Positions 2,992 to 63,034 of a stretch of DNA of 64,000 nt are shown here, in pieces. Origin of the DNA: Apostichopus japonicus (lineage: Eukaryota; Echinodermata; Holothuroidea; Aspidochirotida; Stichopodidae); the NCBI RefSeq assembly GCF_037975245.1, contig NC_092577.1, positions 23,991,398 through 24,055,397 of the forward strand. Reading direction: 5' to 3'. Every line of letters begins with the position of its first letter. Within the stretch, counting starts at the first letter, position 1. The notes under the pieces are model-generated. The model saw only the letters and a list, made by a program, of their open reading frames with translations. It did not search any database and was not told where the DNA came from. The position numbers and the translations under genes were made by a program.

Positions 2992-5859
2992 ATCTGACCA
3001 TGACACTGTGGTAGCACGTTTTGTTTTGCCTTCCATTTTCCCGATCGGGCGTGGCCTATGGAAGCTTAACTGTCGGATTCTTGGCGAGGCAGAATTCCGC
3101 CAGGGTTTCGAGACCAGGTACAAAGGATGGCAAACATTGAAGCCGGCCTTTGCTTGTACATCCCAGTGGTGGGATAATATCAAGTTGCGCATCAAACGTT
3201 ACGCAATTCAGTATTGCGTGACCCGCGCACGGCGTCGAAGAGAAAAATTCTCGAAGCTGTGCGCGGAGGTGAAGTTTGGCGACCCTTCGGCAGTCATCGC
3301 TTTGCAGACGTATCTCGATGAAAAGTACCACGGTGCCCGCGTCAGGGCCCGTGTCGAAGCGGTGGAAGCCGAGGAGCGCCCTTCACTGAGGTTTTACCAG
3401 TCCGTTGGCTCATCGGCGGGTGACAGACGCGTCCCGTCTGTGCGCGCTACCGATGGGACCGTGGTCAGTGACCCTCACGGCATTGTCCGCGTATATGAAG
3501 AGTATTATTCGAGTTTGTTTACGCGTGGCAATGTCGACTCAAAAACCGTTCCCCACGATGTCAATGATATTTTGGGGGGCGGAATAACCACTGTTGAGCT
3601 TTGGAAGTCGCTTTCGAAGATGAAGAATGGCAAGTCCCCGGATTCGGACGGGCTTCCGAGGGAGTTCTACCGAACCTTCTGGGCAATAATAGGACCCGAC
3701 ATCAGAGCCGTCTTCGAAGACGCCTTCCAAAACGGACTGTTAAACGAAAGTCAACGTCTGGGAATGATTACTTTGCTGCCAAAGTCTGGGGACCCCTTGG
3801 ATCCCCATAACAAGCGTCCGATCACCTTGTTAAATGTGGACTACAAGTTGCTGGCTAAGGCTTTGTGCAACCGCCTTGCACTGGCTATGCCGCATCTTGT
3901 TGGTGATCTCCAGACTTGTGCAGTGAAGGGTCATTGCATCCAGCAGAACTTGTGGTTGATGCGCGACTTGACCGACTTTGTTATTGAGCGTGATCTGCCA
4001 TGTGCATTGGTGTCTCTGGACCAGCAGAAGGCCTTTGACATGGTGGATCGTGGTTTTTTAATGAATACTTTTTAAGAAAAAGTCACCCAGGAAAGAACCT
4101 GGGCACGAAAACCAAACTACCAAACGACTGATCCGCTCTCAGCCCCAGTCCCCTTGCATCGGGACTGTGACTGTGTGATCATCGTCAGGTGTGTATCACC
4201 ATTCCCGAAGGGAACAGATACTACACATGATCTTAGCCAAAAGGCCGAGAAGCGATGAATGTATTGGAGACGTTTCAGTTGCACCCAAATTTTCGTAAAT
4301 GGATTTCTGTTTTGTATGAACAAAGTTTCAGTTCTGTTAACGTAAATGGGTTTTGTTCGGAGGTTTTTTACGTAGAGAGGGGGGTGCGCCAGGGGTGCCC
4401 TCTGTCTCCATTACTTTATGTTTTGTTTAGCGAGTCCCTCTCTCGTCTGTTGGAAAGGGACTCCAAACTTGTTCCATTCGTTGTGCCAGGGGGTGCAAAA
4501 GTGAAATGCGCTCAATATGCAGATGACGTGACATGTATTGTTTCGAGTCTCGGCTCCTTTCGCGCACTCTCGCAGGATCTATCTATTTTTGCTACCGGGG
4601 CGAAGTTGAATCCAGAAAAGACAAAGGGCCTTCGTCTTGGTAGCTGGAGATACAGAGACTTACCATTCGGTGCGTCGTGGTCGGATCAGAATATCATATG
4701 GTATATGGTTCGGCTACGATGCACCTTGTGATGTCACCTGGAACGAGAGGGCTGAGGTATTTCAGAGCAGACTCGAAACCTTTGGCAACCGCTGGCTTTC
4801 GATCTTGGGGAAAGTCACTGTTATTAATCGTTTGGTTTCGCCCATCTTGTGGTACCCGGGCGCGGTGTACCCTATTCCGCGTCGCGTCCTGGTACGGTTG
4901 GAGAGGGCGATTTTTTCATTCATATGGTCTGGTGGTACAGAGCTTGTCAAGAGGGCAATATTGTACCAAAAACTGGAAAAGGGGGGGGGACTAGGGGTGG
5001 TTCATCTGGGAAGTAAATTGACCTTTTTGTTATTTAAGCAGTTGTTTGTAGCGGTAACTGACCCAGGGTTGCCTTGTTCATATTTTGTACGTTTTTGGGC
5101 GGTTTGCACCTGCGTCGATGGGTCCCGGTGCTGTTTAGCAACAGAGAACCGCATAGTAGTACTCCAAACAGGGTGGTGCGTGTCATCTGCTCCGCTCTGA
5201 TTGAGTTGCACCCTGTTGACCTGTCACAGCCGGCCCTCGTTCACAGTTCGTTGAGGGATAAGGCCTTGAATGCAACTTTTGTCCAGGGACGTCATTCTGC
5301 CGAAGTATGGCGTTCGGTGCATTCAAGGCTGAATGGTTGCAGGCTCCGTGATCTTGCATGGAGAGTTGCACACGGTGCCTTGGTGACCAACCTAAAAAGA
5401 TATCATTGGCGATTGGGTGATGGACTGTGCCCTAGGACCGGCTGTGACAGCTTAGAGAGTACTGCTCATGTTTTTTGGCATTGTTACTTTGTATTAAACT
5501 TATGGGAGTGGTTCCAGACCTGGACCGACCGTGTTACGGGAGACCGTTCATGGTCGGTAGGGCAGGGCTTTATTTTATATGGGGTAGACCCTCCAGTTTG
5601 TTCGGTAGCTGTGTTGCACCGCATCATTTTTGTTTGCTCTATTGTAAAAAAACATGTTTGGCGGAATAGATGTAATTTGGTTTTTAGGGGGACATTTGCC
5701 AGTTGGCTGGCAGTCCTGGAGGCGGTGAAGTCGGACATTCGCCTTCAGATTGAAGGCGATTTTGGCCGTTTATCTGGGGCTGCCTTTTTTGGACGCTGGT
5801 GTGCTGGGGAGGGGTTTTTCGTTTCGCTGCGTGCGGGTCGTCCTTCTGTACGTTTTTGA
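2992..5859 (+). pseudogene. ORF2 remnant (endonuclease tail, reverse transcriptase, C-terminal Zn knuckle) of Tx1 copy A
   Basis: The encoded protein would nick target DNA and reverse-transcribe the LINE RNA. Visible parts are the endonuclease end SDHDTVVARFVLPS, then RT motifs KMNGKSP-like (KMKNGKSPDSDGLPREFY), NKRPITLLNVDYKLLAKAL and VSLDQQKAFDMVD. After the SINE come GVRQGCPLSPLLYVLF, the catalytic YADDVT, and the Tx1-type thumb region with VTVINRLVSPILWYPGAVYP. A C-terminal knuckle follows (CPRTGCDSLESTAHVFWHC). The first segment is open from 2992 to 4066, the SINE then interrupts the palm, and further frame changes lie near 4590 and 4700 and again around 4980-5080. ORF2 would end at 5859. 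No product is possible. Confidence 0.88.
4067..4254 (-). mobile_element. U2-snRNA-headed SINE, copy 1, inserted in the RT of Tx1 copy A
   Basis: On the minus strand it begins CGCTTCTCGGCCTTTTGGCT and continues TAAGATCATGTGTAGTATC, which matches about the first 45 nt of spliceosomal U2 snRNA (stem I and branch-point recognition region). After CTGTTC the match stops. A different ~140-nt body follows: a CCC-TTCG-GGAA hairpin, an AGTCCC/GGGGACT hairpin, CCCAGG-TTCTTT-CCTGGG, and a 3' end GACTTTTTCTTAAAAAGT. The U2 Sm site and 3' stems are missing, so this is not a U2 gene. ATGAAT is repeated at 4061-4066 and 4255-4260, and removing the element restores the reading seen in copy B, so it is an insertion. 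Full length, 188 bp. Confidence 0.85.
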
Positions 5860-6010
5860 ATGTTTGAGTGGGGGGGGGTTGGGCGTTTTGTCTCTGCAGG
5901 TCGGCGGGCGTATGTTTTTTTGGCTCGCTAGACCTTAGTTTCGTTTGTCAGAATAGGATGGTTCGGTAGTGCCGTTTGGCCGTGACGTTTTGTATCCCGC
6001 ATGGCGGGTC

Positions 6011-6848
6011 GCGTCACTTTTTTCCCCACGATGGTTGTGGGTAATTACCATAAAGGAGGCGTGTCTCAATCAGTGCACATGTGCAGTAGGCCTACTTCAG
6101 GAAAGTTTGGTATGACCTATGCACTGTACTATTGTTACAAATACATTACTGCTATATAAATACTGTACTGCAATTGTTACAAATACATTACTGCTATATA
6201 AATACTGTACTGCAATTGTTACAAATACCGTACCATGCTTCGTACATCACACAAAAACTTGGATATCGCGTGCATGCACTGTACTAGCCTAGCCTATATG
6301 ACTTATTGTAAGGCTAGTGCGAACCACACGTACGTCGACTGGATATGGGCATCGTATGGATATGGGAAGGAACAAAGACAGGAACAAAGACTGATGATTC
6401 TTTGGTACTTGCTTTAGAACGTAAGGAAAGTCCTTATGCAACAAATAACACCGGTCCTCACTCCTCAGGCTAAAAATAATTCGAAATGCCCCAAAGCTGA
6501 CAAAGGCCAACTTTTATTGTTAAATATGTCAAAGATGTAATTTCAAACCAAAGATAAGGTTCCTGTAAGTCAGTTTATAGAAAACGTTAGAAATTCCATC
6601 ACTGGTAATACTAGCCTTTTGCAGTGAAATGATCTTGTACGGTCTTTTCACATGCGTACGTACACGGCCTAGATGTTTCCAGTGTTATATCAATTCACGT
6701 ACGAACACTATGGTAAATAACCTCTGTTGCCATAGGAGCACAATTAGATTGGCGCTATTTACCTTTCCTTTTTGAGGATATCTGCCAGTATAGCGGCACG
6801 CCTACTTTATGTTAATTACCCACAACCATCCTGGGAAAAAAATCACGC
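6011..6848. mobile_element. Mutator-like MITE inside the 3' UTR of Tx1 copy A
   Basis: Imperfect ~53-bp terminal inverted repeats. The left end reads GCGTCACTTTTTTCCCC, then GATGGTTGTGGGTAATTA; the right end, reverse-complemented, reads GCGTGATTTTTTTCCCA followed by the same block and AAAG.AGGCGTG. It is flanked by a 9-bp duplication, TGGCGGGTC (6002-6010) and TGGTGGGTC (6849-6857). Removing it rejoins the LINE 3' end exactly as in copies B and F. A 9-bp TSD with long TIRs fits Mutator-like (MULE) elements. There is no transposase, so it is non-autonomous. The 838-bp interior includes a 42-bp tandem duplication. One mismatch in the TSD suggests moderate age. Confidence 0.75.
6122..6234. repeat. 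42-bp tandem repeat, about 2.6 units
   Basis: The unit is ATTGTTACAAATACATTACT followed by GCTATATAAATACTGTACTGCA, repeated almost perfectly inside the MITE. Probably a local replication slip. Confidence 0.85.
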
Positions 6849-9057: not shown

Positions 9058-9419
9058 GTGCATTTTACGTGCTAAGAAAACGGATACGGACCAAAGGTCA
9101 ACAGAACCAAAAACAATCCGAGTCTGTAAAACAACTGAAACCCATCAATCTCTCACTAACGCAGCGTTTAACGTGACGCGAAAAGGACACGGACCCAAAG
9201 GCCAACAGAAGCAAAACAAATAAAACATTACAAACTGGCCCCAAACTTGCGCCAGCGTCTGCGAAAGGCAGTGTCGGGAAGCCGTGCATGGTCCGCCTCC
9301 ATGCGCAACCTAATGTCACTTTGCACGAGGGGGACAATATCCTCTGCCCTCCAGACGTCCTTATCGAAAACTAGGCGGCATCTGCTGTTCCAGATGTGTC
9401 TCCTGATGACAGCAGTGTG
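9058..9419 (-). mobile_element. Tx1-clade LINE fragment D (3' end), inserted in P1
   Basis: On the minus strand it starts within the ORF2 C-terminus (IRRHIWNSRCRLVFD-type sequence, as in copy C at 33470) and runs through the 3' UTR (GGTCCGTATCCGTTTTCTTA) to GCACGTAAAATGCAC, the family terminus. It interrupts the gene-family copy P1 right after the STVNTLL-coding block. Possible imperfect TSD: ACACACT next to the 5' junction and ACACGCT after the 3' end. An internal gap relative to copy C removes sequence between about 9230 and 9250. It belongs to the C/E/G 3'-end subfamily. Confidence 0.8.
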
Positions 9420-10998
9420 TTAACCGTGGACATTTCCGTCGGACTAGCATCCGATGACAGGTAGGTATCCAATTTTTGTGACACTGGGAATAACACACTA
9501 AGACACTGCTTGGTTAAAACCAGCCCACGAAGGCAAAGGTGGCGCATCTTGTATCTGTGAGTGACAGGGAATTAGAGGGAAAAAATAACATTGGATTAAA
9601 ATGTACTCAATAGGTTGTTGGTGTCTGATTATAACCAAGGGAGGGTTGTGGCCACTGTTAGTGAACGAACCTAAGGGTCAGGTACGTCTGTGGCTCTGCC
9701 AACATTTACTTAAAGCCCTGTGCATAAATATCAAATAAAAGCAATATGAACAAATTATCAGTCAACAGTTGAATGTCAGAAAATAATTATCAACATGATC
9801 ATGTTTGCATTCCATGCACTTTTTCTCTTTCTAAAAACACAAAGTTTTTAACTTTTTGGATGTACGTGCAAATGATATTCTGTGTCCTTTTTGATGCCAT
9901 CAGCACTAAGAAGAAAGATATACATAAGCTTAACAACAATAACAAAGCAATTAAAAAAAAAACCAGGATGGAAAGAAACTTAAAACAAAATAGTAATAAA
10001 TTAATAAAATCAACACATACAACACTAAAATCATACACCCCAAGGACCCATTTAAGTCCATCCCATTTTCGTATGTCCAAATCCAAGGTGGGGGTGGGGT
10101 ATGTGTCAAATGTGTGTCTCATGGGTTACTTTTGTGCCAAAAAAATCCACAAACCCTCAAAACAAATTGGGGAAAAAATCAACAATAACTGTTAAATATC
10201 AGCAAATGTTAATGTGAAAATCATGCATTTGTTACAACCTACAACAACCAAGCAGAACAAGTGAAACATCAACTATGACAACTTCCGTAGGTCACAGTTG
10301 AGTTGAAACACTCCCATCACCTGTTGGTAGTGAGGCACTGCCTTTATAGTTCTTTGCTTAGACTTGGTAATGTCGATGACACTGGTTGATGGTGTGTTCC
10401 AGTCTCTGGTATCCTCTGAAGAATTATCCCATTTGTATTGTGCGTAGTACCTTTACCTGGAAAAAATAGGATATTGTTAAAGTTTTTATTTGTGAATAGA
10501 TGAATTGAGATTTTGTGGTTTTCACTGACAGGATTGAATGGAACTACATGTACAGGTTGTCGATTAATGATACAGATTTTTCTAATATTTTTGGTTTATT
10601 TTAATTCTTCTTTCAACAAGAGTCCAATATAGGCCTTCATGCAACTATGGCGAAAAATTTAGGGCATGCATATATGTCTGCCCTCAAATAAGGACAAACA
10701 ATTATCATGGGTTTGGCATTGGCAGTAGGTTATGCAGGGGTCGGATGTCTGCGTCCCAGGCAGAATTTTCTATCTGCTTTTGACTTGACTGGCTATCTTT
10801 TTTTTGTAGAAAAATTCAACATTTATACAAAAATATCAAGAGTAAAATAGTAAATAAAAAAAGTGCTCACCAGTTAAAGTCTCCTCTCCAAAGTCGTTAT
10901 TGTCCCAGACAATAGTAGTGAACACGCCTTCGTGAAAACCTGCTGGTATGCCACCACCTTGAAGCTATTGAAAAGCCAGTGCTGTATCGTGTTGTAGT
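9420..10998 (-). pseudogene. P1 distal part: three exons of an unnamed zinc-knuckle gene family
   Basis: Minus-strand exons join cleanly. 10998-10871 encodes QHDTALA and then TTIVWDNNDFGEETLTG, ending at CTG|GTGAGC. Next, 10456 to about 10290 follows TTTTTTCCAG, and the split codon gives GKGTTHNTNGIILQRIPETG. Then 9554-9420 follows CACTCACAG and encodes PPLPSWAGFNQAVS, TKIGYLPVI and SPTEMSTVNTLL. I recognise this order (DNNDFGEETLSG, GTTHNTNGI, LPAW..FN, IGY..LI) from large uncharacterised proteins of marine invertebrates. The function is unknown; the DN.DF and later FDQ..Y motifs would suit an RNase-H-like fold, which is speculation. In-frame stops and frame changes occur inside each exon. 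The rest is cut by LINE fragment D. Introns 10870-10457 and about 10289-9555 hold nothing else recognisable. Confidence 0.7.
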
Positions 10999-11865
10999 GC
11001 TTTTTACGTGCAAAGAAAAAAACGGACACGGACCAAAGGTCAACAAAACCAAGAACAATTCCAGTCTGTTTAACAACCACCATAAACCCAACTGAAAACC
11101 CACAAACACAAATCTCTCAGTCACCCACAAATGTATTCAATGTAGCGTTCAACGTGACATGAAATGGACACGGACCCAAAGGCCAACAGAACCAAAACAA
11201 TAACGCTACACAAACCAGCCCCCAAAAGCCAACTCCAAACCACAAACAGAACCCCCCAACCCATATTATGTAACGACCACACAACCCCCCCACACACCTG
11301 AAAAATAACCCACTCCAAAACTTCATCAGAGGTACGCCGTCCCGATGGTAAACAACAGGCCTGCGCATTACCTGCGAAGTTTTCCCAATATGGGTCTTTT
11401 CAGGCCCCTGGCAGTGTTCCCCCTTTTCTTACGAGGGAGCAGAGTTCTTAGCTTCTCGTCACTGATCGAATGGACCTCCCTGTTAGGAACAGGAGGCCCA
11501 CTAGCGACCATCGTGTCCGGTATAACGGAAGCGGCTGCGGGTAGGGTGGAAGGGCCACTCGAGTCAAGGAGATCAGTGGCCTGTTTCGTCTCATCAAACC
11601 AATCGGAGGACTCCTTAGCCACAACTAATAAGGCTGTAGTGCAGTCCTCCATTGGCGAGTCAGATTCTGGGCCACTCAATGTCTCTTGGGCCGGTTGACT
11701 CGGGGCCCAACTAGTATCACCGATAGCGGGCGAAGCTACCGGTAAACCAGTACAAGCGGCATCCTGCGCCGCATGCCACTCCGTTAGTACCATCTCCGCC
11801 GTTTTGTCCTGCTCTGCCTCAGTGGGCAGGCTGGCAGTCTCGGCAAGTTCGATCATTCATTGGTA
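10999..11865 (-). mobile_element. Element E: internally deleted Tx1-type LINE derivative with ORF1 tail fused to 3' end
   Basis: Flanked by an exact 11-bp TSD, CGTGTTGTAGT, at 10988-10998 and 11866-11876; removing the element rejoins P1 in frame (SLVL + QHDTALA). Read on the minus strand, 11856-11368 is an open 162-codon frame rich in Asp/Glu/Ser/Pro, ending KLRTLLPRKKRGNTARGLKR. Its composition resembles the acidic C-terminal half of a Tx1 ORF1. It then fuses at about 11370 to the last ORF2 codons and 3' UTR of the C/D/G subfamily, down to GCACGTAAAAAGCAC. All of the endonuclease and RT is missing. The TSD shows it moved as this short unit, or was deleted just after insertion. It needs a trans-acting LINE. 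Confidence 0.75.
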
Positions 11866-13316: not shown

Positions 13317-15120
13317 TTTGTATAAAATATATCGCATGGAACGAGCGTTGTGATTGCACAATATTTCAGATTGTTGGTATTCGAAATATGAATGCCTAAC
13401 ATAAAATAAAAGTGCATAAGCTCACCAGTGAAAATGAGTAACTCCTGTTAGAAATGTGGCAATCCAAGAAAAATAAATCATCTGGGGCCCGGAGGCATGA
13501 TGTCCATATAATTGTCCGAAGAAACGCGTCCAAACAATACACTTTAAATTTACTCCTCCTTGGATAACACAAGCGATGAAAGTTTTTACAGGTGAGAAAT
13601 AATATCCAAAATTAAATATGTGAGAAAACCTAATAGTAGTTGTTGTAGTTGATGTATAGTGTAGATGAGTAGTAGTATAGTTCCTAGAGTCTTAGCAGAA
13701 GATACTTGTTCCTTGGTGGAAGCCTTCTACTAAGAACTGCACATGGTATAGATCTACCGGATTATGCAATGTGCTAGAATTTAAACTGTCTCTTGATTGG
13801 CCAGTTGTTGCCATGGTACAAAAACAACTACTGTACTAGGGTACAGTAGTTATGGTATTTCAACAAGAGTGAGCTTGGCTGGTCTAAATTCTATACAGTG
13901 ACAATGTTGAAAAGGCTGACCAGTGGTGAACTTACTCTACCTATTCGGCATAGCGTGACCCAGGCTTTTTGATCTCTAGAATTTGAAAATTATCGGTGCT
14001 TTTTCAACGATATTTCGGCAAAAGACAGGTAAAAACTTGTGAACTTTACGATTTTGTGAAACATGGAATATTACAATGTTATTAGTGATTTACGAAAGTA
14101 GTGCCTAAGACCTATATGAACATGTTGACAAGATAATCCGGCACGGCCCACGGTCTAAAAGTATACAGAAAATGTTTATTACTAAATAAAATGGTATTGT
14201 TTTTGCTCTTGATTGAAATATTCAGAAATCTCAAGTCTTGCCGAGTCACCATCTGTTTCAATGTCATTGCCACCATCGTTTTATTTCACATAGTGATTTG
14301 TCGGCCAGTGACACAATTATACTACCTGATTCATCTCCTTTGTACAGTGTAACTATTGAATTTGTGTATACAGTCATAGTATGAACGGACTAACATAAAA
14401 ACAAAGGCATCATTTTATGCCTGATCGTTCCACCTTTGGTAACCTTTATTCTCTTCTTCATTGCTCTTTCTTCATATCTCCCTCTCATAGGGCTATGTCA
14501 TATTGCCTGTAAAAAGGTAGCATTTCATAAGGTTTTATATGTAAATTATTACCTCACCCTAAAGCTTCTCGTTTGGGTGGATTTTCAGGAATGATGAGAT
14601 GCTACAGCTAGCCAATACAAGCTTTGACATGTGATACCTTGGTTAGTGAGAGTGTAGTAGCACTTTAACTGGCTTAACAAGTCCAAATAATCTCCTTTCG
14701 ATGCTGTCTCATTTCTCCTTTCAATGCAATCTCCTTTCAATGCAACATTGTGTTACACAGGCTTTCAAGTGACTCCTATTTTCTCCAACTTTTTTAACCT
14801 TCCGCTTGTTCATAATCTTCAAATTCTTGTTCAGACTTTTTTACATGACGTCACTCAACTGAACTTCTGATTGAATAAATGAATACAGTGAATATAATTG
14901 CATTATTTTACTTGACTTAATGAAGTTCATAAAATAAAATTAACAAAGTTAATTAGTTCTTACATTCCCTGCAGGCCTGGTGAAACATTATGTTCTGTGT
15001 TGATTCCCTGCTGAAGGCAAGATTTATGTGCGGTGATGATAGCATGTGTGTCTGTGTGTGACACCTTGGCTTGTGAACCTGATATCTCAAGAAGTCAGAG
15101 TTACTTGAACTTCACACTTG
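13317..15120. other. Intergenic stretch, nothing assigned
   Basis: No long open frame or known element. Minor repeats only, such as TCTCCTTTC(A/G)ATGC three times near 14690-14745. Around 15050-15110 is a single copy of the CTGATATCTCAAGAAG block of the 7835 minisatellite. Confidence 0.5.
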
Positions 15121-15296
15121 TTATTTAGATATCCCCTTAATTATATGTATTTTTTTTTCCTGGGGTTTAAAAGTCTTATCAGGTATATACTTAACAGTCT
15201 AAGCGAAAGTTGATGGAGACTCAACCTTGTAGAGGCACATCAATCAATGTAGAGGCACATCAATCAATGCTGCAATGCCCTTGTATTTCTGATCAG
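15121..15296. repeat. Left member of a near-identical direct repeat pair (176 bp)
   Basis: Identical to 17471-17644 except for two extra T in one T-run. The unit itself holds a 22-bp tandem duplication (TGTAGAGGCACATCAATCAA plus TG). Such identity means a recent event. Confidence 0.95.
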
Positions 15297-17460: not shown

Positions 17461-17470
17461 CGTTCGTTGG

Positions 17471-17644
17471 TTATTTAGATATCCCCTTAATTATATGTAT
17501 TTTTTTCCTGGGGTTTAAAAGTCTTATCAGGTATATACTTAACAGTCTAAGCGAAAGTTGATGGAGACTCAACCTTGTAGAGGCACATCAATCAATGTAG
17601 AGGCACATCAATCAATGCTGCAATGCCCTTGTATTTCTGATCAG
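17471..17644. repeat. Right member of the near-identical direct repeat pair (174 bp)
   Basis: Matches 15121-15296. It follows directly on a (CGTT)n run (17449-17470) and is followed by CTGAGTTTGG, unlike the left copy, so the repeat boundary at GATCAG is sharp. Confidence 0.95.
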
Positions 17645-18894: not shown

Positions 18895-19103
18895 TAGCTT
18901 TATGTCGCTTCTCGGCCTTTTGGCTAAGATCATGTGTAGTATCTGTTCTTTTAGGGAATGGTGATACAAACCTGACGATGATCACACAGTCACAGTCCCG
19001 ATGCAGGGGAATGGGCTGAGAGCGGATCAGTCGTTTGGTAGTTTGGTTTTCGTGCCCAGGTTCTTTCCTGGGTGACTTTTTCTTAAAAAGTAGCTTTATG
19101 TCG
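18895..19103. repeat. 13-bp target-site duplication around SINE copy 2
   Basis: TAGCTTTATGTCG at 18895-18907 and 19091-19103, identical. Confidence 0.92.
18905..19090 (+). mobile_element. U2-snRNA-headed SINE, copy 2 (full length)
   Basis: Starts CGCTTCTCGGCCTTTTGGCT and keeps the U2 branch-point region (GTGTAGTATCTGTTC). It shares with the other copies the change CAAG to CATG at U2 position ~30, then the same non-U2 body and 3' end CTTTTTCTTAAAAAG. TAGCTTTATGTCG occurs at 18895-18907 and again at 19091-19103: an exact 11-13-bp TSD (CG overlaps the element start). TSD length and 3' end indicate LINE-driven retroposition. A TGGCTAAGATC stretch resembles a Pol III A box and GGTTCTTTCC a weak B box; promoter use is unproven. 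It sits three bases after the gene S stop codon. Confidence 0.88.
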
Positions 19104-22548: not shown

Positions 22549-22712
22549 TCTTGTGGGGGGGGGGGGGGTGGGCGTTTTGTCTCTGCAGGTCGGCGGGCGT
22601 ATGTTTTTTTGGCTCGCTAGACCTGAGTTTCGTTTGTCAGAATGGGATGGTTCGGTAGTGCCCTTTGGCCGTGACGTTTTGTATCCCGCATGGCGGGTCA
22701 CGTAAAAAGCAC
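22549..22712 (+). mobile_element. Tx1-clade LINE stub F (A/B subfamily 3' end)
   Basis: A G-run, then GGGCGTTTTGTCTCTGCAGG to GGGTCACGTAAAAAGCAC, matching the last ~160 bp of copy B. Exact 11-bp TSD TGATCTTGCCA at 22538-22548 and 22713-22723. A severely 5'-truncated insertion inside the hAT element, so younger than it. Confidence 0.9.
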
Positions 22713-25465: not shown

Positions 25466-25655
25466 ATGCGCGTATCCAGGGGGGGGGGGCGTTGGGGACG
25501 AAACGTGATATACGCACAGAGCGGAAGGCCCGGGTTCGAATCCCTGTGGAGGCTGGAAGTTTTTTCACTGTTCTTGATTTTAAAACTCATTACGATTTTC
25601 ATTTATATATATTCATTTGCCTTTGTCGTTTACCTCCATTGCATTAACATAAAGT
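25466..25655 (+). mobile_element. Chimeric junction: hAT-like end fused to a truncated tRNA-SINE
   Basis: GCGTATCCAGG, a G-run and GCGTTGGGG (25470-25497) match the right end of the element at 57583-59640 in inverted sense. At about 25508 the sequence turns into the SINE body: ACAGAGCGGAAGGCCCGGGTTCGAATCCCTG, with the B box intact but no A box. It then follows the 25855 copy through GGCTGGAAGTTTTTTCAC to CCATTGCATTAA. Confidence 0.65.
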
Positions 25656-25854: not shown

Positions 25855-26022
25855 AGCGTCCATAGCCTAGTGGTTAGGGTGTCCGCGTACAGAGCGGAAG
25901 GCCCGTGGTTCGAATCCCTGTGGAGGCTGGAAGTTTTTTTCACCGTTCTTGATTTTAAAACTCATTACGATTTTCATTTATATATATTCATTTGCCTTTG
26001 TCGTTTACCTCCATTGCATTAA
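25855..26022 (+). mobile_element. tRNA-derived SINE, full head
   Basis: The A box TAGCCTAGTGGTTAGGG and B box GGTTCGAATCC sit in a tRNA-sized head (25858-25925), followed by GTGGAGGCTGGAAGTTTTTT and an AT-rich body ending at TTGCATTAATATATA. The 3' part is ~98% identical to the truncated copy at 25508-25655. An internal Pol III promoter is expected from the boxes. Confidence 0.82.
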
Positions 26023-26163
26023 TATATATATATAAATATAAATATGTAAATATAAATATATATATATATTTATATATATATATATTTATATATATATACC
26101 GTATATATATATATATACCGTATATATATACCGTATATATATATGTGTGTGTTCAGACTAGTT

Positions 26164-28489: not shown

Positions 28490-30125
28490 ACGTTACAATA
28501 TCATCGACCCGAACGTTTCGTCTGTCGGCGTTCCATTTCTTGCGAGGAACCAGCAGTGGAAATACGTCACGATTCCAACATTTCCAGAACGCATTAACGA
28601 TTCTTCGTACAAATTCCACTGTATGCTTCGGGTTCTTGGTTTCTCTGAAAGGACCTTGTGGAACTGTGGTTCACGCTCGTCCCAATAACATATCGTTAGG
28701 ACAAAGATATGATCCGTCGTCAGGGTCATTAGGCAATCTTCCAATTGGACGCTGATTAAACAAATTGGCAACTTACAACTTTTGACAAGCGGTTCAACGC
28801 AACCGTTCTGATGGGGTGCTAATGACGTAGCGAATTTCCATTCCACTCCTTTGTCAGCACAAAATTCTTGAAGTTGTGTCTCATCATATTCTTTGATCAT
28901 TTCTTGCAGTTCTTTCTGTGCTCCAACAAACTGTTTTCCATTGTCGCTTGTAATAACTTTCGGGCATCCTCGATATGCCAAGAATCTTCTGAGAACTTGG
29001 ATGAACTCCATTGTTGAAGCGTCGGTTGCAAGATCTAGGTGTACTGTTCTTGTGTTCAGGCAAGTGAATATTACTCCATAATGCTTGCTAGTTTTGTTGC
29101 GACCAACTTTCACGCTGAATGGTCCAAAATAGTCAGAAGCTGTATAGTAGAAGGGGGGAATCTCGGGCATCAAGCGATATTTTGGCAAATCAGCCATAAA
29201 CTGTGACTCAGTTTTATGCACAGCATAATTTTTGCATAGCATCTTCTTACATAGCACGCACCTATGCTTCACTGTTTTCGCAAGCTTCTGCACTCCTATT
29301 ATCCAATATTTTCTTCCTACTTTGGCAGCGGTAGTTGCCACGCCATCATGACCAATTTCATGAGTTTGCCTTGTACTTAGCATTGATATTGGATGTTGTA
29401 TGGGATGACGGCAATCGTAAGAAAGCAGTCTCTTCTCAACTCGCCCACCAACATGGATGATTCCTTTCTCTTCAAATGGACTGAGTGTTTTGCATTCTCC
29501 CCTTTTAATCTGGTCATGTATGGATTTCAGAGCTTCTTGAATCCAATACATTTCTGCCCTTTCTAACTCTTGAAGGGTTGAGTGTTCCAGTCTCAGGTCA
29601 GCTAGTATAATCATCCTTGTGGCATCTAAGTTTTAGGTGGCTGAGAAATCTTTGTACATAAGCGGTTACCCTCATCAATTTTCTCCAGCTTGAAAACCTT
29701 TTGCAATTAATGAAATCTGACTTTGTCACCGTGGCAATCTGAAAAATTGTCCGTTTTTCATCAACTCCTGTATCAATTTGAACTTCTTGGTGTGGCCATT
29801 CTGTCTGTGGTTGGCATAAGAATGGAGGTCCTGTTATCCATCTATCAGATAACTTCTCTACAGGAACACCTCCAGAGATATCATCTGCCGGATTTATGTC
29901 TCCCGGCACATGCTTCCATTGCGTGTAGGATCTGATCTCTCCGATTCGAGCAGAAAAAAAAGGTTTGAAAGTCCTTGCCTCGCTGTGAATCCATCCTAGG
30001 ACTATCATACTGTCGGTCATGTAGACAGTTTCACTGATCTCTAAGGTGGTTTCTTCCTTGAAAGTTGAACTGCCATAACTGCTGCTTGCAGCTCAAGTGT
30101 TGGAACAGAGAGTTTCTTTAACGGA
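28490..30125 (-). mobile_element. BEL/Pao LTR retrotransposon fossil (RNase H and integrase part of pol)
   Basis: Minus-strand pieces recall BEL/Pao pol: the RNase H end (PTLELQAA, WKHVPGDINPADDISGG), the integrase zinc-binding region (CVLCKK) and the core with SDYFGPF, NTRTVHLDLATD and TSDNGKQFVG. gag, RT and LTRs were not found. It is a partial, broken copy with only a few breaks visible, of moderate age. Confidence 0.85.
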
Positions 30126-31405: not shown

Positions 31406-33204
31406 AGCTAAACCATGGAGCAGGGCTGCGTCTTTTAAGTTCAAGTATGGCACTGAGTGTAACGAGAATGCAACGCTCGCAGAGGCTATTGGTCTGGCAC
31501 GAATAGAAACGATTATCAATGCGAGCAAAGTTTATGGGGACACTTTGCATGTAGATCTTGAAACACAGCTTGCTGAAAACGAGTGCTTGAAGATTTATTA
31601 GCACAGAAACTGCGTGTCTCGGTATACATCAAAAACCAACCTTGCCAAGTATAAGAACAATGTGAGTGCCCCGCCAGCCAAAAGACTTGACTTCATTCAA
31701 GCTCCATTGCCTGTACTGTGGCCAAGCCTGTAAAATAAACAAGAATCCAAGGAATCCTCAAAGATGGAGATCAGCCTACCTGTGTCGTTCAACTCATAGT
31801 GTACACTGTGATAAGCCCTACAAAGAATATCTCCTTGAAAAATGTCACTCTCGTAACGACCACTGGGCAAATGAAGTCCAAAGTCGCATTGAAGGCGCTG
31901 TCAGTGCACTTGCATGCAGTTGATGCTCGCTACCACAAGGACTGCATGAGCTTATTTGTGAGCAACCGGTGCCGTTTAGATGATGAAAAAGGCACAACCG
32001 AACAGCCAGAGACAGACAAAGCCCTGCAGTTTGTGATAGAAACCCTACAGGTCGACATAAGTCGAATTTGGAACTCAGTTGAACTCTTCAAGGAATACCA
32101 GGATAGTCACGGGGTGTGCACTCACACGCGTCCGTCTCATAAAAAAGGAGTTGCGAAAGTACTTTGGTAATGACTTTGTTGTCATTTCAACTCCTGGTTA
32201 TGCCATCTTAATTGCATTCCCATTCCACAAGAATGCTGCCCTGATGCTCAAGATGATTAAGGACGATGAAGAGAATGATGACATTGAGAGTAACGTTAGC
32301 GTTTTGGCCAAGCATGTAGTGAAGGGGTGCAAGTCTTCATCCTGTGACAAGTCAAAGTACCAAGTGCACATCAATAAGGATGTTGCTGCTGAGTACGCGT
32401 CTAGTACAGTGATGAGGTTACTGGCTGCTCTGTCCTCAGTTGGATACTACCTTACCAGCGCTGTTCATTGCCAATATTATCACAGACGTCATAACAAACA
32501 TCTGCATCTGCTGATACTGTCAGACAGGGAATATCTGATTCTGAGGAGGGTCTTATCCCAGTTGTGGCTGACAAGTTCTCCAAATGGAAAGCTCTCCACG
32601 CACTCGTTGGCAATGATCATCATGCAAACGACCCATGAAGATGACACCCCAACAAGTGAAACCATTCCACGTCTAAAGAAGTGTGAAATGGCTAAGCCAA
32701 TTGCAGATGGACAGGAAAGTGATGTGAAAATTTCACATGTCAAAAAAAAAGAACACCAATGGCAGAGCTCCAAACATCCTCACTCTCATCAGATATTCTA
32801 AATCATCAGGATGTGTCACGGAAGAGAGCTGCGGAAAATGACTTTGCCTTTGGTACCCAAGACAAAAATTGTTTACCTACCGCTCATTGATAAGCCTCCT
32901 GCTGATTCAGCAACAATGATGACAGCAATGGTCAAGGTAAAGCAGATATCAGAGACTGCTGGACAGAGATACACAATTCTCACGCTTGACCAACAACTAT
33001 ACCGCATCGCATTGAATGTTCTGTGGGAGAATCAAGGAAGGTTTTTTCACTTCTATCTGAGACTAGGTGGTATGCACTTATTGATGAGTTACTGTGGCTG
33101 CATTGGTACGCTGATGGCTGACGCCGGGATAGCAGAAATACTAAGTGCTGCTTTCGGAGGTGTACTGAAAATGCTCATTGGCAAGAAGTTCCCACAAAAA
33201 AAAC
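31406..33204 (+). pseudogene. P2: second copy of the unnamed zinc-knuckle gene family
   Basis: The acceptor TTTGTTTTAATGTAG precedes 31406. Successive pieces in shifting frames are CNENATLAEAIGLARIETII, then HRNCVSRYTSKTNLAKY, LHCLYCGQACKINKNPRNPQ, AVDARYHKDCMSLFVSNRCR, LTRVRLIKKELRKYFGNDF and VISTPGYAILIAFPFHKNAA. Next are GKLSTHSLAMI, ETIPRLKKCEMAKPI, TKIVYLPLIDKPPADSATMM, LTLDQQLYRIALNVLWEN, LGGMHLLMSYCGCIGTLM and MLIGKKFPQ. I recognise this exact order from repetitive uncharacterised proteins of echinoderm, hemichordate and cnidarian genomes. It has C-x2-C / H-x3-C modules then a conserved catalytic-looking region (DQQLY, GGMH). Unlike P1 it reads without introns. About five frame changes. 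It ends at the junction with LINE C; the ~100 C-terminal codons are missing. Confidence 0.75.
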
Positions 33205-34822: not shown

Positions 34823-35084
34823 ATATGCTTGCTCTGGGAATTCCAGAGAAAAAGAATTTTGTATGAAGACGCTGAAAAATTGTTAAGAGAAGAGAGAGTC
34901 CCACTTACTGTTACAATATTGTTACTGTTATGTATTGAGATAAAACAAAATTGATCACTTGGTATTGAATGTAAATACATGTAAAATAACCACAAACAGG
35001 TTAGCTTTAAGTATAACTGTACTTCTCGTTTCCAAGAAAACACGACAGAGCGCTCCCTTGGGAAGCCGATACAACGAAACACGC
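34823..35084. other. Short spacer
   Basis: No gene recognised between LINE C and the array at 35085. Confidence 0.5.
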
Positions 35085-49751: not shown

Positions 49752-49860
49752 CAAAATGCAGTTTTCAGTTGAGTTTTTGGTGGTTGTTAAACAGACTGGG
49801 ATTGTTTTTGGTTTTGTTGACCTTTGGTCCGTGTCCGTTTTCTTTGCACGTAAAAAGCAC
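49752..49860 (+). mobile_element. Tx1-clade LINE stub G (C/D/E subfamily 3' end)
   Basis: TTTTCAGTTGAGTTTTTGGT to GTTGACCTTTGGTCCGTGTC and CTTTGCACGTAAAAAGCAC: the last ~110 bp of the subfamily, ~94% like element E. Inserted next to, or into, the LINE fragment at 48650. TSD not obvious. Confidence 0.85.
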
Positions 49861-51870: not shown

Positions 51871-52117
51871 ATCTTTTAAATTAACAGTTGGCAGTTGGCA
51901 GTTGGAGTTGGCTTTCGTGGAGTGCGGACGTGTTTTCGCTCTCGCTCTTCATCTGTTGCAGCTGTTATTGTACTGTGCTGTGCTATACTTCCCGCCAGAC
52001 GGGTGTGATAGCTTGTGTTCGTGTGTTTTCCTCAGTTCGTATATCGTTTGTTGTTTCACTATCCTGTCTTTTCTTTGTTTTGTGTTACTACCCTGTGGCC
52101 TAGCCACCTTCGGTATC

Positions 52118-53236
52118 ATGGCATCGCGCCGTGATTCTCGGATAGTTAAGTTGTCGTTCACCGGTGAACAAGCTGTTCCACCGGTGCAAGTTTTTAGTAT
52201 TTTGAAGAGCAAGGGTGTTGTTGTGCCTGGAGAGGTTGATGCTTTGCAAGCTCTCCAGGGTCGTAATACGTACGATTTACGTTTTACCAGTGACGTGGCC
52301 CGTCAGAAAGGTTTTACCAGTGACGTGGCCCGTCAGAAAGGTGTCACGTTGCTGAGTAACGTCGAGGGGATGACAGTTACTCCATACGAGCGATCCGTAT
52401 GGGTAACTATCATCCACGTAGGACTAGAGGTGCGGCAGGAACTTGTCGTAACGGTTTTGGGTCGGTTCGGGGCTGTCAAGGCTGCCAAAATGTGCTCCTA
52501 TGCACAAGCCCCTGGGGTGTTGAACGGGCACCGACAGGTTCGGATCGACCTGAAACAGGACATTCCCTCCTTCCTGTTTATAGCAGGGCATAAAGCCCAC
52601 GTGCGGTATCCCGGTCAGCCCCGTACCTGCTTCAGGTGTGGGGAGACCGGGCACGAAGCCAAGGGCTGCCCAAACAAGAAATGTGGGCGCTGCCTTCGTC
52701 TTGGGCATGATAGCACCGCTTGCCCAAACGAGGTTGTGTGCTCACTATGTGGGAAGGAGGGACATGTCTTTCGAGCTTGTCCCTCCTCTTATGTCTCTAG
52801 GACTAAGAGTGGGGGTAAGTCAAGTTCCGACGCACCTACTACTTCACGAGAGGGGGAATCTGGTGGGATTTTACCCTCCCCTGCACCTGGTTCACCCTCC
52901 CCCGTCGTTGCAGACCCCAACCCCGTGCCCGCACCGAGAAAGTCTCCACCAGCTTCCCCCATCAACTCGTCCAGTTCCGTCCCCAATCCGCCGCCGGTAT
53001 CGCCAGATCCGGAGGCTTTGTCTGACGGAGAATCGGTGGTCATCGATTCTCCGGAGGTTCTGTCTGACAGCGACTCCGGTGAATCGGTGATCAGCGAGCC
53101 GAAACGTGCCACTGGGACGAGCTGGTACGACGAAATGGGGGAACCCTCTCTTAAAAGGTCGGCTTCAAGTGACGACTCGGACGACGATATGTCGTCAAGG
53201 GCGCGCTTGAAGCTTACGGAATCGTCGTCTTCGTAG
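52118..53236 (+). CDS. ORF1 protein of Tx1 copy B (nucleic-acid-binding, three CCHC knuckles)
   Basis: 372 codons, uninterrupted. The start is taken at the ATG of MASRRDSRIVKLSFTGEQAV; the frame is open further up to about 51902, but without an earlier ATG in a convincing place. Residues ~50-150 look like an RRM-type fold (VWVTIIHVGLEVRQELVVTV, GHRQVRIDLKQDIPSFLFIA). Three consecutive knuckles follow at about residues 170-225: CFRCGETGHEAKGC, CGRCLRLGHDSTAC and CSLCGKEGHVFRAC. The C-terminal third is Pro/Ser-rich, then acidic (SDSDSGE, SSDDSDDD). The protein would coat the LINE RNA. A 30-bp exact tandem duplication (52281-52310, 52311-52340) doubles FTSDVARQKG without shifting the frame. It may be expressible if the element's promoter is intact. 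Confidence 0.88.
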   Translation: MASRRDSRIVKLSFTGEQAVPPVQVFSILKSKGVVVPGEVDALQALQGRNTYDLRFTSDVARQKGFTSDVARQKGVTLLSNVEGMTVTPYERSVWVTIIHVGLEVRQELVVTVLGRFGAVKAAKMCSYAQAPGVLNGHRQVRIDLKQDIPSFLFIAGHKAHVRYPGQPRTCFRCGETGHEAKGCPNKKCGRCLRLGHDSTACPNEVVCSLCGKEGHVFRACPSSYVSRTKSGGKSSSDAPTTSREGESGGILPSPAPGSPSPVVADPNPVPAPRKSPPASPINSSSSVPNPPPVSPDPEALSDGESVVIDSPEVLSDSDSGESVISEPKRATGTSWYDEMGEPSLKRSASSDDSDDDMSSRARLKLTESSSS

Positions 53237-53256
53237 TTTTGCCCCACTGCCCTCTC

Positions 53257-56200
53257 ATGGCCCATACACTTTCAGTTGCCACTTTCAACGTGAATGGCAT
53301 GAGGGATCATCGCAAGCGCAGTGGCATTTTCCAATATTGTAAATCAATGGAGGTCGACTGCGTTTGCCTGCAAGAAACACATATTTTGGAAGAAGATGTC
53401 CCTCTATGGGCTTATGAGTGGGGTGGTGAGCTGCATGCTTCGTTTGGTTCGTCTTCATCCTGTGGCACTGTCATCCTTCTGTCAGCTCGTCAGGCGGGTT
53501 GTGCCACTAGGGTGGAGACGGATCACGAGGGCCGATTGGTTTGCATTCTATTCAAGTATCCACAGGGTTACATCGCCATTTGCAATGTGTATGCTCCCAA
53601 TCGGCCTTCTGCTAGACGAGATTTTTTTAACACGCTGCCTTCCTTTGTTCCTGGTAGTGCGCCGTGTGTCATGGTCGGAGACTTTAACTGTGTCCCAGAC
53701 TCGGGTCTTGACAGACTCGGAACTTCTGTGTCTGCAAGTCCCGACGCTGGGATCACAGAATTGGACAGATTCACTTCGGCACACCTTTTAGCCGATGTCT
53801 GGAGGCATATGCACCCGTGTAGTACGGGGTATACGTGGGTGAGGCCTAACGGAGAAGATGCCTCCAGGATAGATCGAGTGTATGCGCCCGTAAGTTTTAC
53901 ATTTTCGGGTTGCGAGACGCTCAGCTGTCCGCTCTCTGACCATGACACTGTAGTAGCACGTTTTGTTTTGCCTTCCATTTTCCCCATCGGGCGGGGCCTA
54001 TGGAAGCTTAACTGTCGGATTCTTGGCGAGGCAGAGTTCCGCCAGGGTTTCGAGACCAGGTACAAAGGATGGCAAACATTGAAGCCGGCCTTTGCTTCTA
54101 CATCCCAATGGTGGGATGAGGTCAAGTTGCGCATCAAACGCTACGCAATTCAGTATTGCGTGACCCGCGCACGGCGTCGAAGAGAAATTCTCGAAGCTGT
54201 GCGCGGAGGTGAAGTTTGGCGACCCTTCGGCAGTCATCGCTTTGCAGACTTATCTCGATGAAAAGTACCACGGTGCCCGCGTCAGGGCCCGTGTCGAAGC
54301 GGTGGAAGCCGAGGAGCGCCCTTGACTGAGGTTTTACCAGTCCGTTAGCTCATCGGCAGGTGACAGACGCGTCCCGTCTGTACGCGCTACTGATGGGACC
54401 GTGGTTAGTGACCCTCACGGCATTGTCCGCGTATATAAAGAGTACTATTCGAGTTTGTTTACGCGTGGCAATGTCGACTTGTCGGCACAGGCTGATTTAT
54501 TGAGGGGAATCTCAAAAACCGTTCCCCACGATGTCAATGATATTTTGGGGGGCGAAATAACCACTGTTGAGCTTTGGAAGGCGCTTTCGAAGATGAAGAA
54601 TGGCAAGTCCCCGGGTTCGGACGGGCTTCCGAGGGAGTTCTACCGAACCTTCTGGGCAATAATAGGACCCGACATCAGAGCCGTCTTCGAGGACGCCTTC
54701 CAAAACGGACTGTTAAACCAAAGTCAACGTCTGGGCATGATTACTTTGCTGCCCAAGTCTGGGGACCCCTTGGATCCCCGTAACAAGCGTCCGATCACCT
54801 TGTTAAATGTGGACTACAAGTTGCTGGCTAAGGCTTTGTGCACTGGCTATGCCGCATCTTGTGGGTGATCTCCAGACTTGTGCAGTGAAGGGTCATTGCA
54901 TCCAGCAGAACTTGTGGTTGATGCGCGACTTGACCGACTTTGTTATTGAGCGTGATCTGCCATGTGCATTGGTGTCTCTGGACCAGCAGAAGGCCTTTGA
55001 CATGGTGGATCGCGGCTTTTTAATGAATGTATTGGAGACGTTTCAGTTGCACCCAAATTTTCGTAATTGGATTTCTGTTTTGTATGAAGAAAGTTTCAGT
55101 TCCGTTATCGTAAATGGGTTTTGTTCGGAGGTTTTTAACGTAGAGAGGGGGGTGCGCCAGGGGTGCCCTCTGTCTCCATTACTTTATGTTTTGTTTAGCG
55201 AGTCCCTCTCTCGTCTTTTGGAAAGGGACTCCAGACTTGTTCCATTCGTTGTGCCAGGGGGTGCCAAAGTGAAATGCGCTCAATATGCAGATGACGTGAC
55301 ATGTGTTGTTTCGAGTCTGGGCTCCTTTCGCGCACTCTCGCAGGATTTATCTATTTTTGAGAGAGCTACCGGGGCGAAGTTGAATCCAGAAAAGACAAAG
55401 GGCCTTCGTCTTGGTAGCTGGAGATACAGAGACTTACCATTCGGTGCGTCGTGGTCGGATCAGAATATCAAAATTAATGGTATATGGTTCGGCTACGATG
55501 CACCTGGTGATGTAACCTGGAGCGAGAGGGCTGAGGTATTTGAGAGCAGGCTCGAAACCTTTGGCACCCGCTGGCTTTCGATCCTAGGGAAAGTCACCGT
55601 AGTTAATCGTTTTGTTTCGCCCATCTTGTGGTACCCGGGCGCGGTGTATCCGATTCCGCGTCGCGTCCTGGTGCGGTTGGAGAGAGCGATATTTTCATTT
55701 ATTTGGTCGGGTGGTACAGAGCTTGTCAAAAGGGCGGTAATGTACCAAAAACTGGAGAAGGGTGGGTTAGGGGTGGTTCATCTGGGAAGTAAGTTAACTT
55801 GTTTGTTATTTAAGCAGTTGTTTGTAGCGGTAACTGACCCAGGGTTGCCTTGTTCATATTTTGTACGTTTTGGGGGCGGTTTGCACCTGCGTCGATGGGT
55901 CCCGGCGCTGTTTAGCAACAGAGAACCGCATAGTAGTACTCCAAACAGGGTGGTGCGTGTCATTTGCTCCGCTCTGATTGAGTTGCCCCCTGTTGACCTG
56001 TCACAGCCGGCCCTCGTTCACAGTTCGTTGCGGGATGGGGCCTTGAATGCAATTTTTGTACAGGGACGTCATCCTGTCGGTGCATTCAAGGCTGAATGGT
56101 TGCAGGCTCCGTGACCTTGCATGGAGAATTGCACACGGTGCCTTGGTGACCAATCTGAAAAGGTATCATTGGCGATTGGGTGATGGACTGTGCCCGAGGA

Positions 56201-56664
56201 CCGGCTGTGACAGCTTAGAGAGTACTGCCCATGTTTTTTGGCATTGCCCCTTTGTTTTGAACTTGTGGGAGTGGTTTCAGTCCTGGACCGACCGTTTAAC
56301 GGGAGACCGTTCCTGGTCGGTAGGACAGGGTTTTGTTTTGTATGGATTAGATCCTCCAGTTTGTTCCGTTGCTGTGTTGCAGCGTATTATTTATGTTTGT
56401 TCTGTTGTAAAAAAACTTATTTGGAGGAATAGATGTGATGTTGTTTTTAGGGGGAAATTTGCCAGTTGGCAGGCAGTCCTGGAGGCGGTGAAGTCTGACA
56501 TTCGCCTTCAGGTCGAAGGCGATTTTCGCCGTTTATCTAGGGCTGCCTTTTTTGGACGGTGGTGTGCTGGGGAAGGGTGTTGTTTCGCTGCGTGCTGGTC
56601 GTCCTTTTGTAGTTTTTTAATATTTCAGTGGGGGGTTGGGCGTTTTGTCTCTGCAGGTCGGTGA
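53257..56664 (+). pseudogene. ORF2 of Tx1 copy B (endonuclease, RT, Zn knuckle), disrupted
   Basis: Starts MAHTLSVATFNVNGMRDHRK, a complete AP-type endonuclease with CLQETHI, VMVGDFNCVPD, SRIDRVYAP and the terminal SDHDTVV. RT follows (KMKNGKSPGSDGLPREFY, ITLLNVDYKLLAK, VSLDQQKAFDMVD, GVRQGCPLSPLLYVLF, YADDVT), then the Tx1 thumb (VTVVNRFVSPILWYPGAVYP) and CPRTGCDSLESTAHVFWHC. Against copy A the lesions are a 2-nt indel near 54187 that shifts frame, a TGA at 54323-54325, an 11-nt loss at about 54842, a 14-nt loss near 56077 and a 2-nt difference near 56570 at the very C-terminus. Between them the frames are long and open. Confidence 0.9.
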
Positions 56665-56798
56665 GCGTATGTACTTTTTTTGGCTCGCTTGACCTGAGGT
56701 TCGTTTGTAAGAATGGGATGGTTTGGTAGTGCCGTTTGGCCGTGACGTTTTGTATCCCGTATGACGGGTCACGTAAAAAGCACATCTTTTAAATTAAC

Positions 56799-62915: not shown

Positions 62916-62925
62916 TGATCATCGG

Positions 62926-63034
62926 GACTTGCATCGGTACTGTGACTGTGTGATCATCGTCATGTGTGCATCACCATTCCCCTCGAAAGGGAACAGATAC
63001 TACACATGATCTTAGCCAAAAGGCCGAGAAGCGA
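62926..63034 (-). mobile_element. U2-snRNA-headed SINE, copy 3 (3' part missing)
   Basis: Minus strand: TCGCTTCTCGGCCTTTTGGC, the CATG diagnostic change, GTGTAGTATCTGTTC, a longer CCCTTTCGAGGGG hairpin and GATGATCACACAGTCACAGT, stopping at CCGATGCAAG about 75-80 nt before the family 3' end. Loss of the 3' end is opposite to the usual LINE-type 5' truncation. No TSD seen. Confidence 0.8.

What the first reader, a model, noticed from the sequence alone, without database searches (positions are those of the whole stretch)
18895..19103. SINE family whose head is the 5' 45 nt of U2 snRNA and whose body is unrelated
Three copies (4067-4254, 18905-19090, 62926-63034) begin with U2 stem I plus the branch-point recognition sequence, share the same CAAG-to-CATG change, and switch at the same base to a common non-U2 body with stable hairpins and a CTTTTTCTTAAAAAG end. 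Two have TSDs (13 bp and 6 bp). This is a propagating family, not scattered U2 pseudogenes. SINEs with snRNA-derived heads have been described (SINEU, in crocodilians); I know of no established U2-headed family in invertebrates, but cannot search. U2 is normally Pol II-transcribed from an external promoter, so how this family is transcribed is open; TGGCTAAGATC and GGTTCTTTCC could act as A- and B-like boxes.
Basis: partly seen in the sequence, partly recalled or inferred. Interest (0 to 1): 0.85.

Follow-up and report, generated by a model that had tools for sequence, protein, structure and literature searches.

The report
U2 snRNA-headed SINE-like element
Three scattered copies of one short jumping element begin with the front end of a splicing RNA (U2) fused to unrelated sequence, and duplicated target sites at two of them show that they were pasted into place; elements of this general kind are known, but I could not match this body to anything.

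Summary
Three copies share U2 snRNA nt 1/2-45, one head change (A30 to T) and a non-U2 body. Copy 2 has a 13-bp target-site duplication (TSD), copy 1 a 6-bp one. Copy 1 interrupts an L1-group LINE copy, and an uninterrupted paralogue in the window differs there by exactly the 188-nt element plus the TSD. Copy 3 lacks its 3' part and any recognisable TSD. Best reading: a snRNA-headed SINE (SINEU kind), moved by LINE target-primed reverse transcription.

Not supported: the proposed A/B boxes, at chance in an ungapped scan. Inconclusive: tail homology to the window's L1-group LINEs; ends share AAAAAG, but alignments are mostly not significant, and the fullest LINE copy has a broken ORF2. New lead: a predicted hairpin pairing U2's branch-recognition bases with the body, strong in 2 of 3 copies.

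Genome-wide copy number, host species and catalogue novelty could not be tested: no genome is held. SINEU is already a Repbase class.

The parts
18905..19090 (+). c2: full-length U2-headed element (head 18905-18948 = U2 nt 2-45; body and tail 18949-19090)
18895..18907 (+). c2 5' TSD TAGCTTTATGTCG; its last TCG overlaps the U2 5' end
19091..19103 (+). c2 3' TSD TAGCTTTATGTCG
4067..4254 (-). c1: full-length element inserted in a LINE reverse-transcriptase ORF
4061..4066 (+). c1 TSD ATGAAT (3' side of the element)
4255..4260 (+). c1 TSD ATGAAT (5' side of the element); its AT overlaps the U2 5' end
62928..63034 (-). c3: head plus first part of the body; 3' part missing, no TSD found
2993..6014 (+). 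L1-group LINE copy B, host of c1 (93.1% and 91.2% identical to LINE copy A on the two sides of the insertion)
51886..56783 (+). L1-group LINE copy A (CCHC ORF1, endonuclease, RT) between two copies of the 15-bp TSD ATCTTTTAAATTAAC; holds the empty site for c1 at about 55020-55045. Its ORF2 is split over several frames, so this copy is probably not active
22549..22712 (+). 5'-truncated LINE copy C with the 11-bp TSD TGATCTTGCCA; shows the LINE 3' terminus GTAAAAAGCAC

Best explanation
This is a SINE-like element with a snRNA-derived head. Its RNA starts at the U2 5' end, runs through U2 nt 45, and switches to a non-U2 body and a hairpin tail ending in AAAAAGT. A LINE enzyme reverse-transcribes it at a nicked target (TPRT), leaving TSDs. 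The likeliest machinery is the L1-group LINE family (Tx1-like by its layout, recalled) that has several copies in the same window. Shown: three copies with one junction and one diagnostic base, two TSDs, an empty site, and LINE copies of that family with their own TSDs. Inferred: the partner LINE (about 0.5); that the RNA comes from one or a few source loci behind a U2-type Pol II promoter rather than from an internal Pol III promoter (about 0.4); and that the predicted hairpin keeps the U2 branch-recognition bases out of splicing (a guess). The stated confidence is for the core: a retroposed, snRNA-headed family.
For: U2 heads at 3 of 3 copies with the same A30T. Common body without U2 similarity. 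No flank similarity: in 6 of 6 flank comparisons at least 25 of 300 shuffles score as well. TSDs of 13 and 6 bp, and an exact empty site in a 91-93% identical LINE paralogue. LINE RT: top solved match 8c8j ('RNA-directed DNA polymerase', 6.3e-24), next four LINE-1 ORF2 (1.4e-23 to 2.3e-23), the other five of 10 hits at 2.1e-9 or weaker; endonuclease domain Exo_endo_phos; LINE TSDs of 15 and 11 bp. AAAAAG lies 1 nt from the 3' end in c1 and c2 and 3 nt from it in LINE ends A, C, F, G; post hoc chance of such a placement about 0.3%. Pol III boxes at chance in an ungapped scan; T4+ runs: 3 in c1, 4 in c2, 1 in the shortened c3, with TTTTT in the tail of c1 and c2, against a mean of 1.4 per 188 nt of window.
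Against: Only three copies seen; no genome held. c3 has no TSD and lacks the 3' part, which is unusual for TPRT. Local alignment of body/tail to LINE 3' ends is mostly within the shuffle range: LINE A 15/500 for both copies, but not at the terminus; F 176/500 and 156/500; G 81/500 and 113/500; C 385/500 and 169/500 (c1 and c2). LINE end E shows AAAATG and end B neither form. LINE copy A, the fullest, has ORF2 split over ORFs in different frames (53173-54261, 54326-54868, 54807-56114, 56047-56664), so an active partner is not seen. The junction hairpin is not significant in c2 (219/1000). A passage of PMC7245038 says SINE heads serve primarily as internal Pol III promoters. No transcription data; the source-locus idea rests only on the missing internal promoter.
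Confidence: 0.78

Rival explanations
1. Chimeric U2 retropseudogenes: independent template jumps or RNA ligations joined U2 to other RNAs, as with U6/LINE-1 chimeras in mammals.
For: LINE-1 is reported to make snRNA chimeras by ligation or template switching (passages of PMC13174262); the head stops inside U2.
Against: 3 of 3 copies share the same body, the same junction at nt 45 and the same A30T. Independent events would not give this.
Confidence: 0.05
2. A classical Pol III SINE using TGGCTAAGATC as A box and GGTTCTTTCC as B box.
For: A-box-like match with 2 mismatches at nt 18-29 of the head; SINE heads serve primarily as Pol III promoters (passage of PMC7245038).
Against: Of 1500 random 190-nt window pieces 77% have an equal or better A box, 90% an equal or better B box, 69% both; the tRNA-like control in the window has 1 and 0 mismatches. 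The scan was ungapped, used recalled consensus boxes and set no order or spacing. T4+ runs: 3 in c1, 4 in c2, 1 in c3.
Confidence: 0.12
3. The founder arose when a U2-gene-targeting LINE (Keno- or Utopia-like) or its non-autonomous relative inserted in a U2 gene, so that the U2 promoter drove a U2 nt 1-45/insert transcript that then retroposed.
For: In Phytophthora the U2 sequence downstream of Utopia starts at nt 39, and Keno, an APE-type LINE, shares that 3' flank (section 6 of PMC4640811). A 7-nt duplication (39-45) would leave a 5' flank ending at nt 45, where the head ends. Keno's place in the L1/Tx1 group is recalled.
Against: The same section gives no TSD for arthropod Utopia and 20 bp for reptile Utopia, neither of which ends at nt 45; the TSD length of Keno was not found. 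No U2 gene with an insertion is in the window; the body shows no convincing match to the LINEs here.
Confidence: 0.15
4. Body and tail belong to an older SINE that gained a U2 head by template jumping during reverse transcription (recurrent head addition is recalled for SINEU-1).
For: Architecture as described for snRNA-headed SINEs; c1 folds well below shuffles (z -4.15).
Against: No headless or otherwise-headed copy of the body in the window (nhmmer); none found by exact patterns or blastn in collections that should hold little animal DNA.
Confidence: 0.35

Closest known systems
SINEU (U1/U2 snRNA-headed SINEs; Kojima 2015, GBE, doi 10.1093/gbe/evv100; original not held; seen in passages of PMC8010984, PMC8143547 and PMC4455052)
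   Same: Head from U2 snRNA, unrelated body, TSDs. A Tx1-clade LINE partner is recalled for the crocodilian families; an L1-group LINE is the candidate here.
   Different: Crocodilian scope and insertion preference for a Mariner element are recalled. Here c1 lies in a LINE. Body and tail could not be compared because no SINEU sequence is held.
U2 snRNA retropseudogenes and snRNA/LINE chimeras
   Same: U2 5' end copied into new sites, presumably by a LINE enzyme.
   Different: A common non-U2 body, shared junction and shared A30T in 3 of 3 copies.
Keno (APE-type LINE) and Utopia (RLE-type LINE), which insert in U2 genes
   Same: U2 resumes at nt 39 after the insertion, close to the head end at nt 45.
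   Different: Those are LINEs that insert into U2 genes; here the U2 part travels with a short element to unrelated sites.

Membership tests
SINEU | 5' head derived from U1 or U2 snRNA | tested here: met
SINEU | Retroposed, repeated short element: several copies, TSDs, clean empty site | tested here: met
   3 copies; TSDs at 2 of 3 and an exact empty-site paralogue for c1; 64 kb only
SINEU | Mobilised by a Tx1-clade LINE (recalled) | tested here: inconclusive
   L1-group LINE copies with TSDs present, ORF2 of the fullest broken; tail match not significant; no tree built
SINEU | Body/tail sequence of a described SINEU family | not testable with these tools
   No Repbase or Dfam; paper not held
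SINEU | Insertion preference for Mariner-N4 (recalled) | not tested
   c1 lies in a LINE; c2 and c3 flanks were not classified
SINE in the strict sense (Pol III unit); not filed here | Recognisable A and B boxes, better than chance | tested here: not met
   Ungapped scan: 69% of 1500 random pieces do as well
SINE in the strict sense (Pol III unit); not filed here | Transcription by Pol III | not testable with these tools
   No expression data
SINE in the strict sense (Pol III unit); not filed here | 3' tail shared with a partner LINE | tested here: inconclusive
   Terminal AAAAAG shared; alignments mostly not significant
U2 retropseudogene | U2 sequence only, without a shared foreign body | tested here: not met
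   c1 body vs U2 46-end within the shuffle range (295/300); body shared by the copies

The most novel reading that the evidence does not exclude
A retroposon family that borrows the spliceosomal U2 gene for expression: founded at the U2 nt 38/39 target site used by U2-targeting LINEs, transcribed by Pol II from U2-type source loci, with the U2 branch-recognition bases locked in a hairpin with the body so that the RNA does not act as a U2 decoy. The A30T change extends that hairpin in c3 (-20.0 to -24.4 kcal/mol) but makes no difference in c1 or c2, which would then have lost the matching base.
Probability: 0.12. Interest if true: 0.75.

Novelty: new member of a known kind. Interest (0 to 1): 0.5.

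Why it matters
U2 genes use an external Pol II promoter (established knowledge), so a U2-headed retroposon raises the question of how copies without their own promoter propagate. The window holds the element, a candidate partner LINE family and an empty site together, so source locus, polymerase and partner become directly testable once the host genome is searched. If the host lies outside the lineages already reported for SINEU, snRNA heads were captured more than once or such elements moved between lineages.

Tried and rejected
Genome copy count: no genome held. Body 26-mer, exact: 0 hits in viral contigs and in genome contigs. Two further exact body/tail patterns: 0 hits in viral contigs. 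blastn of c2 against phages and of c1 against plasmids: no match. These collections should hold little animal DNA, so the misses say little. Exact U2 head pattern with A or T at nt 30: 3 hits in genome contigs, 0 in viral contigs; 3 of 3 are Rfam U2 (one whole, two cut by the sequence ends) with A30, presumably eukaryotic DNA in bacterial bins. LINE RT in viral contigs: 2 stretches matched a pattern, neither encodes a relative. SINE/LINE tail homology by local alignment: mostly not significant. Body as a plain inverted copy of the head: not significant; own head against the first 60 nt of body gives c1 178/1000, c2 637/1000, c3 98/1000, and the lowest of the 12 comparisons is 67/1000. The position-specific hairpin energy is low in 2 of 3 (c1 1/1000, c3 0/1000, c2 219/1000), but the segment was chosen after seeing the folds. 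A fold-back origin is only a lead.

Literature (listings unless stated): eight searches. 'SINEU' as a whole word is in 15 papers, four of them on transposable elements by title. Of these I read passages of PMC8010984 (lepidopteran SINEs; its one SINEU mention is background), PMC4455052 and PMC8143547; PMC5753468 was not opened. Of 8 papers with the phrase 'snRNA gene-derived heads' four were not opened (PMC5753468, PMC7922186, PMC7397244, PMC4977797). Phrases for snRNA-derived SINEs gave 0 papers. PMC4640811: section 6 and passages. Passages only: PMC13174262, PMC7245038, PMC9148063 (no snRNA-SINE passage under its 'SINEU' hits, which are SINEUP), PMC3706591. This covers the held open-access library only and does not show that no such family is in print.

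Full report
Observation. The three stretches were read and scored with Rfam. U2 passes its gathering score at 3 of 3, and the confident part is the first 44-46 nt. Pairwise alignment to a recalled human U2 gives one mismatch in each copy, A30 to T, and ends at nt 45 (c1, c3) or 47 (c2, where TT may be chance). The rest of U2 is absent from the c1 body (295 of 300 shuffles align as well). c1 and c2 are 96.3% identical over 188 columns; c3 matches c1 at 92.5% over 107 and c2 at 89.5% over 105. nhmmer finds no fourth copy in 64 kb; the next hit has E = 0.4.

Insertion evidence. c2 has a 13-bp TSD (0 of 5000 random site pairs reach 13) and c1 a 6-bp TSD (1.7% of random pairs reach 6, so weak alone). 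c1 lies in the RT reading frame of a LINE whose sister copy in the same window is uninterrupted. The two are 93.1% and 91.2% identical left and right of the site, and the only large difference in the stretch aligned there is a 194-nt insert: the 188-nt element plus ATGAAT. That settles c1 as an insertion. The U2 5' end overlaps the TSD by 2-3 nt in both, as microhomology at the 5' junction of TPRT would give (inference). c3 has no TSD and stops after GATGCAAG; a later deletion or an atypical event would explain it. Flanks of the copies show no similarity beyond shuffles (6 of 6 comparisons; the lowest is 25 of 300).

Family. Same junction, same head mutation and same body in 3 of 3 copies argue for one propagating source. 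Three U2 sequences found in bacterial bins keep A30, so A30T looks like a family mark rather than a common U2 variant, on that small sample. Three copies in 64 kb give a 95% Poisson range of 0.6-8.8 per window. This window was picked because it holds them, so no genome number follows.

Machinery. LINE copy A lies between two copies of a 15-bp TSD and has a CCHC ORF1 and an Exo_endo_phos endonuclease domain. Its RT matches 8c8j ('RNA-directed DNA polymerase') and LINE-1 ORF2 entries at 6.3e-24 to 2.3e-23, and R2-type and other RTs at 2.1e-9 or weaker (10 sequences matched). Its ORF2 is split over several frames, so this copy is probably dead; no intact partner was seen. The Tx1 clade is my recall from the layout; no tree was built. 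LINE 3' ends A, C, F and G finish in AAAAAGCAC, and c1 and c2 in AAAAAGT. E carries AAAATG and B differs. The chance of AAAAAG in a four-position slot is 0.3% in this window, but the motif was chosen after looking. Local alignments do not separate from shuffles except LINE A (15 of 500), and that match is not at the terminus. Partnership with these LINEs is plausible, not shown.

Expression. The suggested A and B boxes are no better than random pieces of the window: 69% of 1500 have both as good, while a tRNA-like sequence in the window scores 1 and 0 mismatches. The scan was ungapped and used recalled consensus boxes, so a degenerate promoter is not excluded. c1 has three T4+ runs, c2 four and the shortened c3 one, with T5 in the tail of c1 and c2, against a mean of 1.4 per 188 nt. 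Pol III would be expected to stop early (established knowledge). U2 genes use an upstream Pol II promoter (established knowledge), which daughters at new sites would not carry. I therefore favour one or few source loci behind a U2-type promoter; this is inference, and it goes against the general statement that SINE heads serve primarily as Pol III promoters (passage of PMC7245038).

Structure. c1 folds well below shuffles (z -4.15), c3 moderately (-2.35), c2 little (-1.75). Folding U2 nt 24-45 with the first 27 (c1, c2) or 31 (c3) nt of body gives one hairpin in which nt 27-40 (A35 bulged), including branch-recognition bases, pair with the body. With the body shuffled, 1/1000 (c1), 0/1000 (c3) and 219/1000 (c2) fold as well; the segment was chosen after seeing the folds. 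c2 keeps two pairs as T-G where c1 and c3 have C-G, but breaks one at nt 33; c1 and c2 are mismatched opposite T30, c3 is paired. Setting nt 30 back to A costs 4.4 kcal/mol in c3 and nothing in c1 or c2. Three sequences cannot establish covariation. Masking of the branch-recognition bases is a guess at function.

Comparison. SINEU is a Repbase class; [quoted passage not shown] The founding paper is not held; its crocodilian scope, Tx1 partner and Mariner preference are recalled. U2 resumes at nt 39 after Utopia in Phytophthora, and Keno has the same 3' flank (section 6 of PMC4640811). A founding insertion in a U2 gene is thus possible, since a 7-nt duplication would end at nt 45; but the TSDs given there for Utopia are none (arthropods) or 20 bp (reptiles). 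It is a numerical coincidence until a U2 locus with the body is found.

Verdict. A real snRNA-headed retroposon, best filed as a new member of a known kind (SINEU by its head), with a useful local context (empty site, candidate partner LINE family) and an open question of transcription.

Noticed in passing
25855-25929 (+): tRNA-like sequence with clean A and B boxes (1 and 0 mismatches); 25886-26026, which includes part of it, recurs at 25513-25651 (96%), perhaps a tRNA-headed SINE.
   Followed up: partly
33089-34882 (-), 9058-9413 (-), 10997-11366 (-), 49761-49860 (+): Second L1-group LINE family (RVT_1; zf-RVT just below cut-off). Two copies end in GCACGTAAAAAGCAC; the 9-kb copy reads GCACGTAAAATGCAC and the 33-kb copy does not show the end.
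   Followed up: partly
728-2291 (-): LINE of another type, in pieces: Exo_endo_phos_2 above its cut-off, RVT_1 just below.
   Followed up: no
28493-30092 (-): ORFs of which 28493-29629 has an integrase core (rve, above cut-off) and a weaker Integrase_H2C2 match (below cut-off); probably a BEL/Pao LTR element (recalled from the look of the sequence).
   Followed up: no
52281-52342: Perfect 30-bp tandem duplication inside ORF1 of LINE copy A.
   Followed up: no
15120-15296 and 17470-17644: Near-identical repeat (98.9% over 177 columns), each with a 20-nt tandem repeat inside.
   Followed up: no
62911-62931 (-): At the c3 break the body words AGTCCCGATG and ATCAG reappear in a different order (by eye), suggesting slippage or rearrangement at the 3' end of c3.
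   Followed up: no
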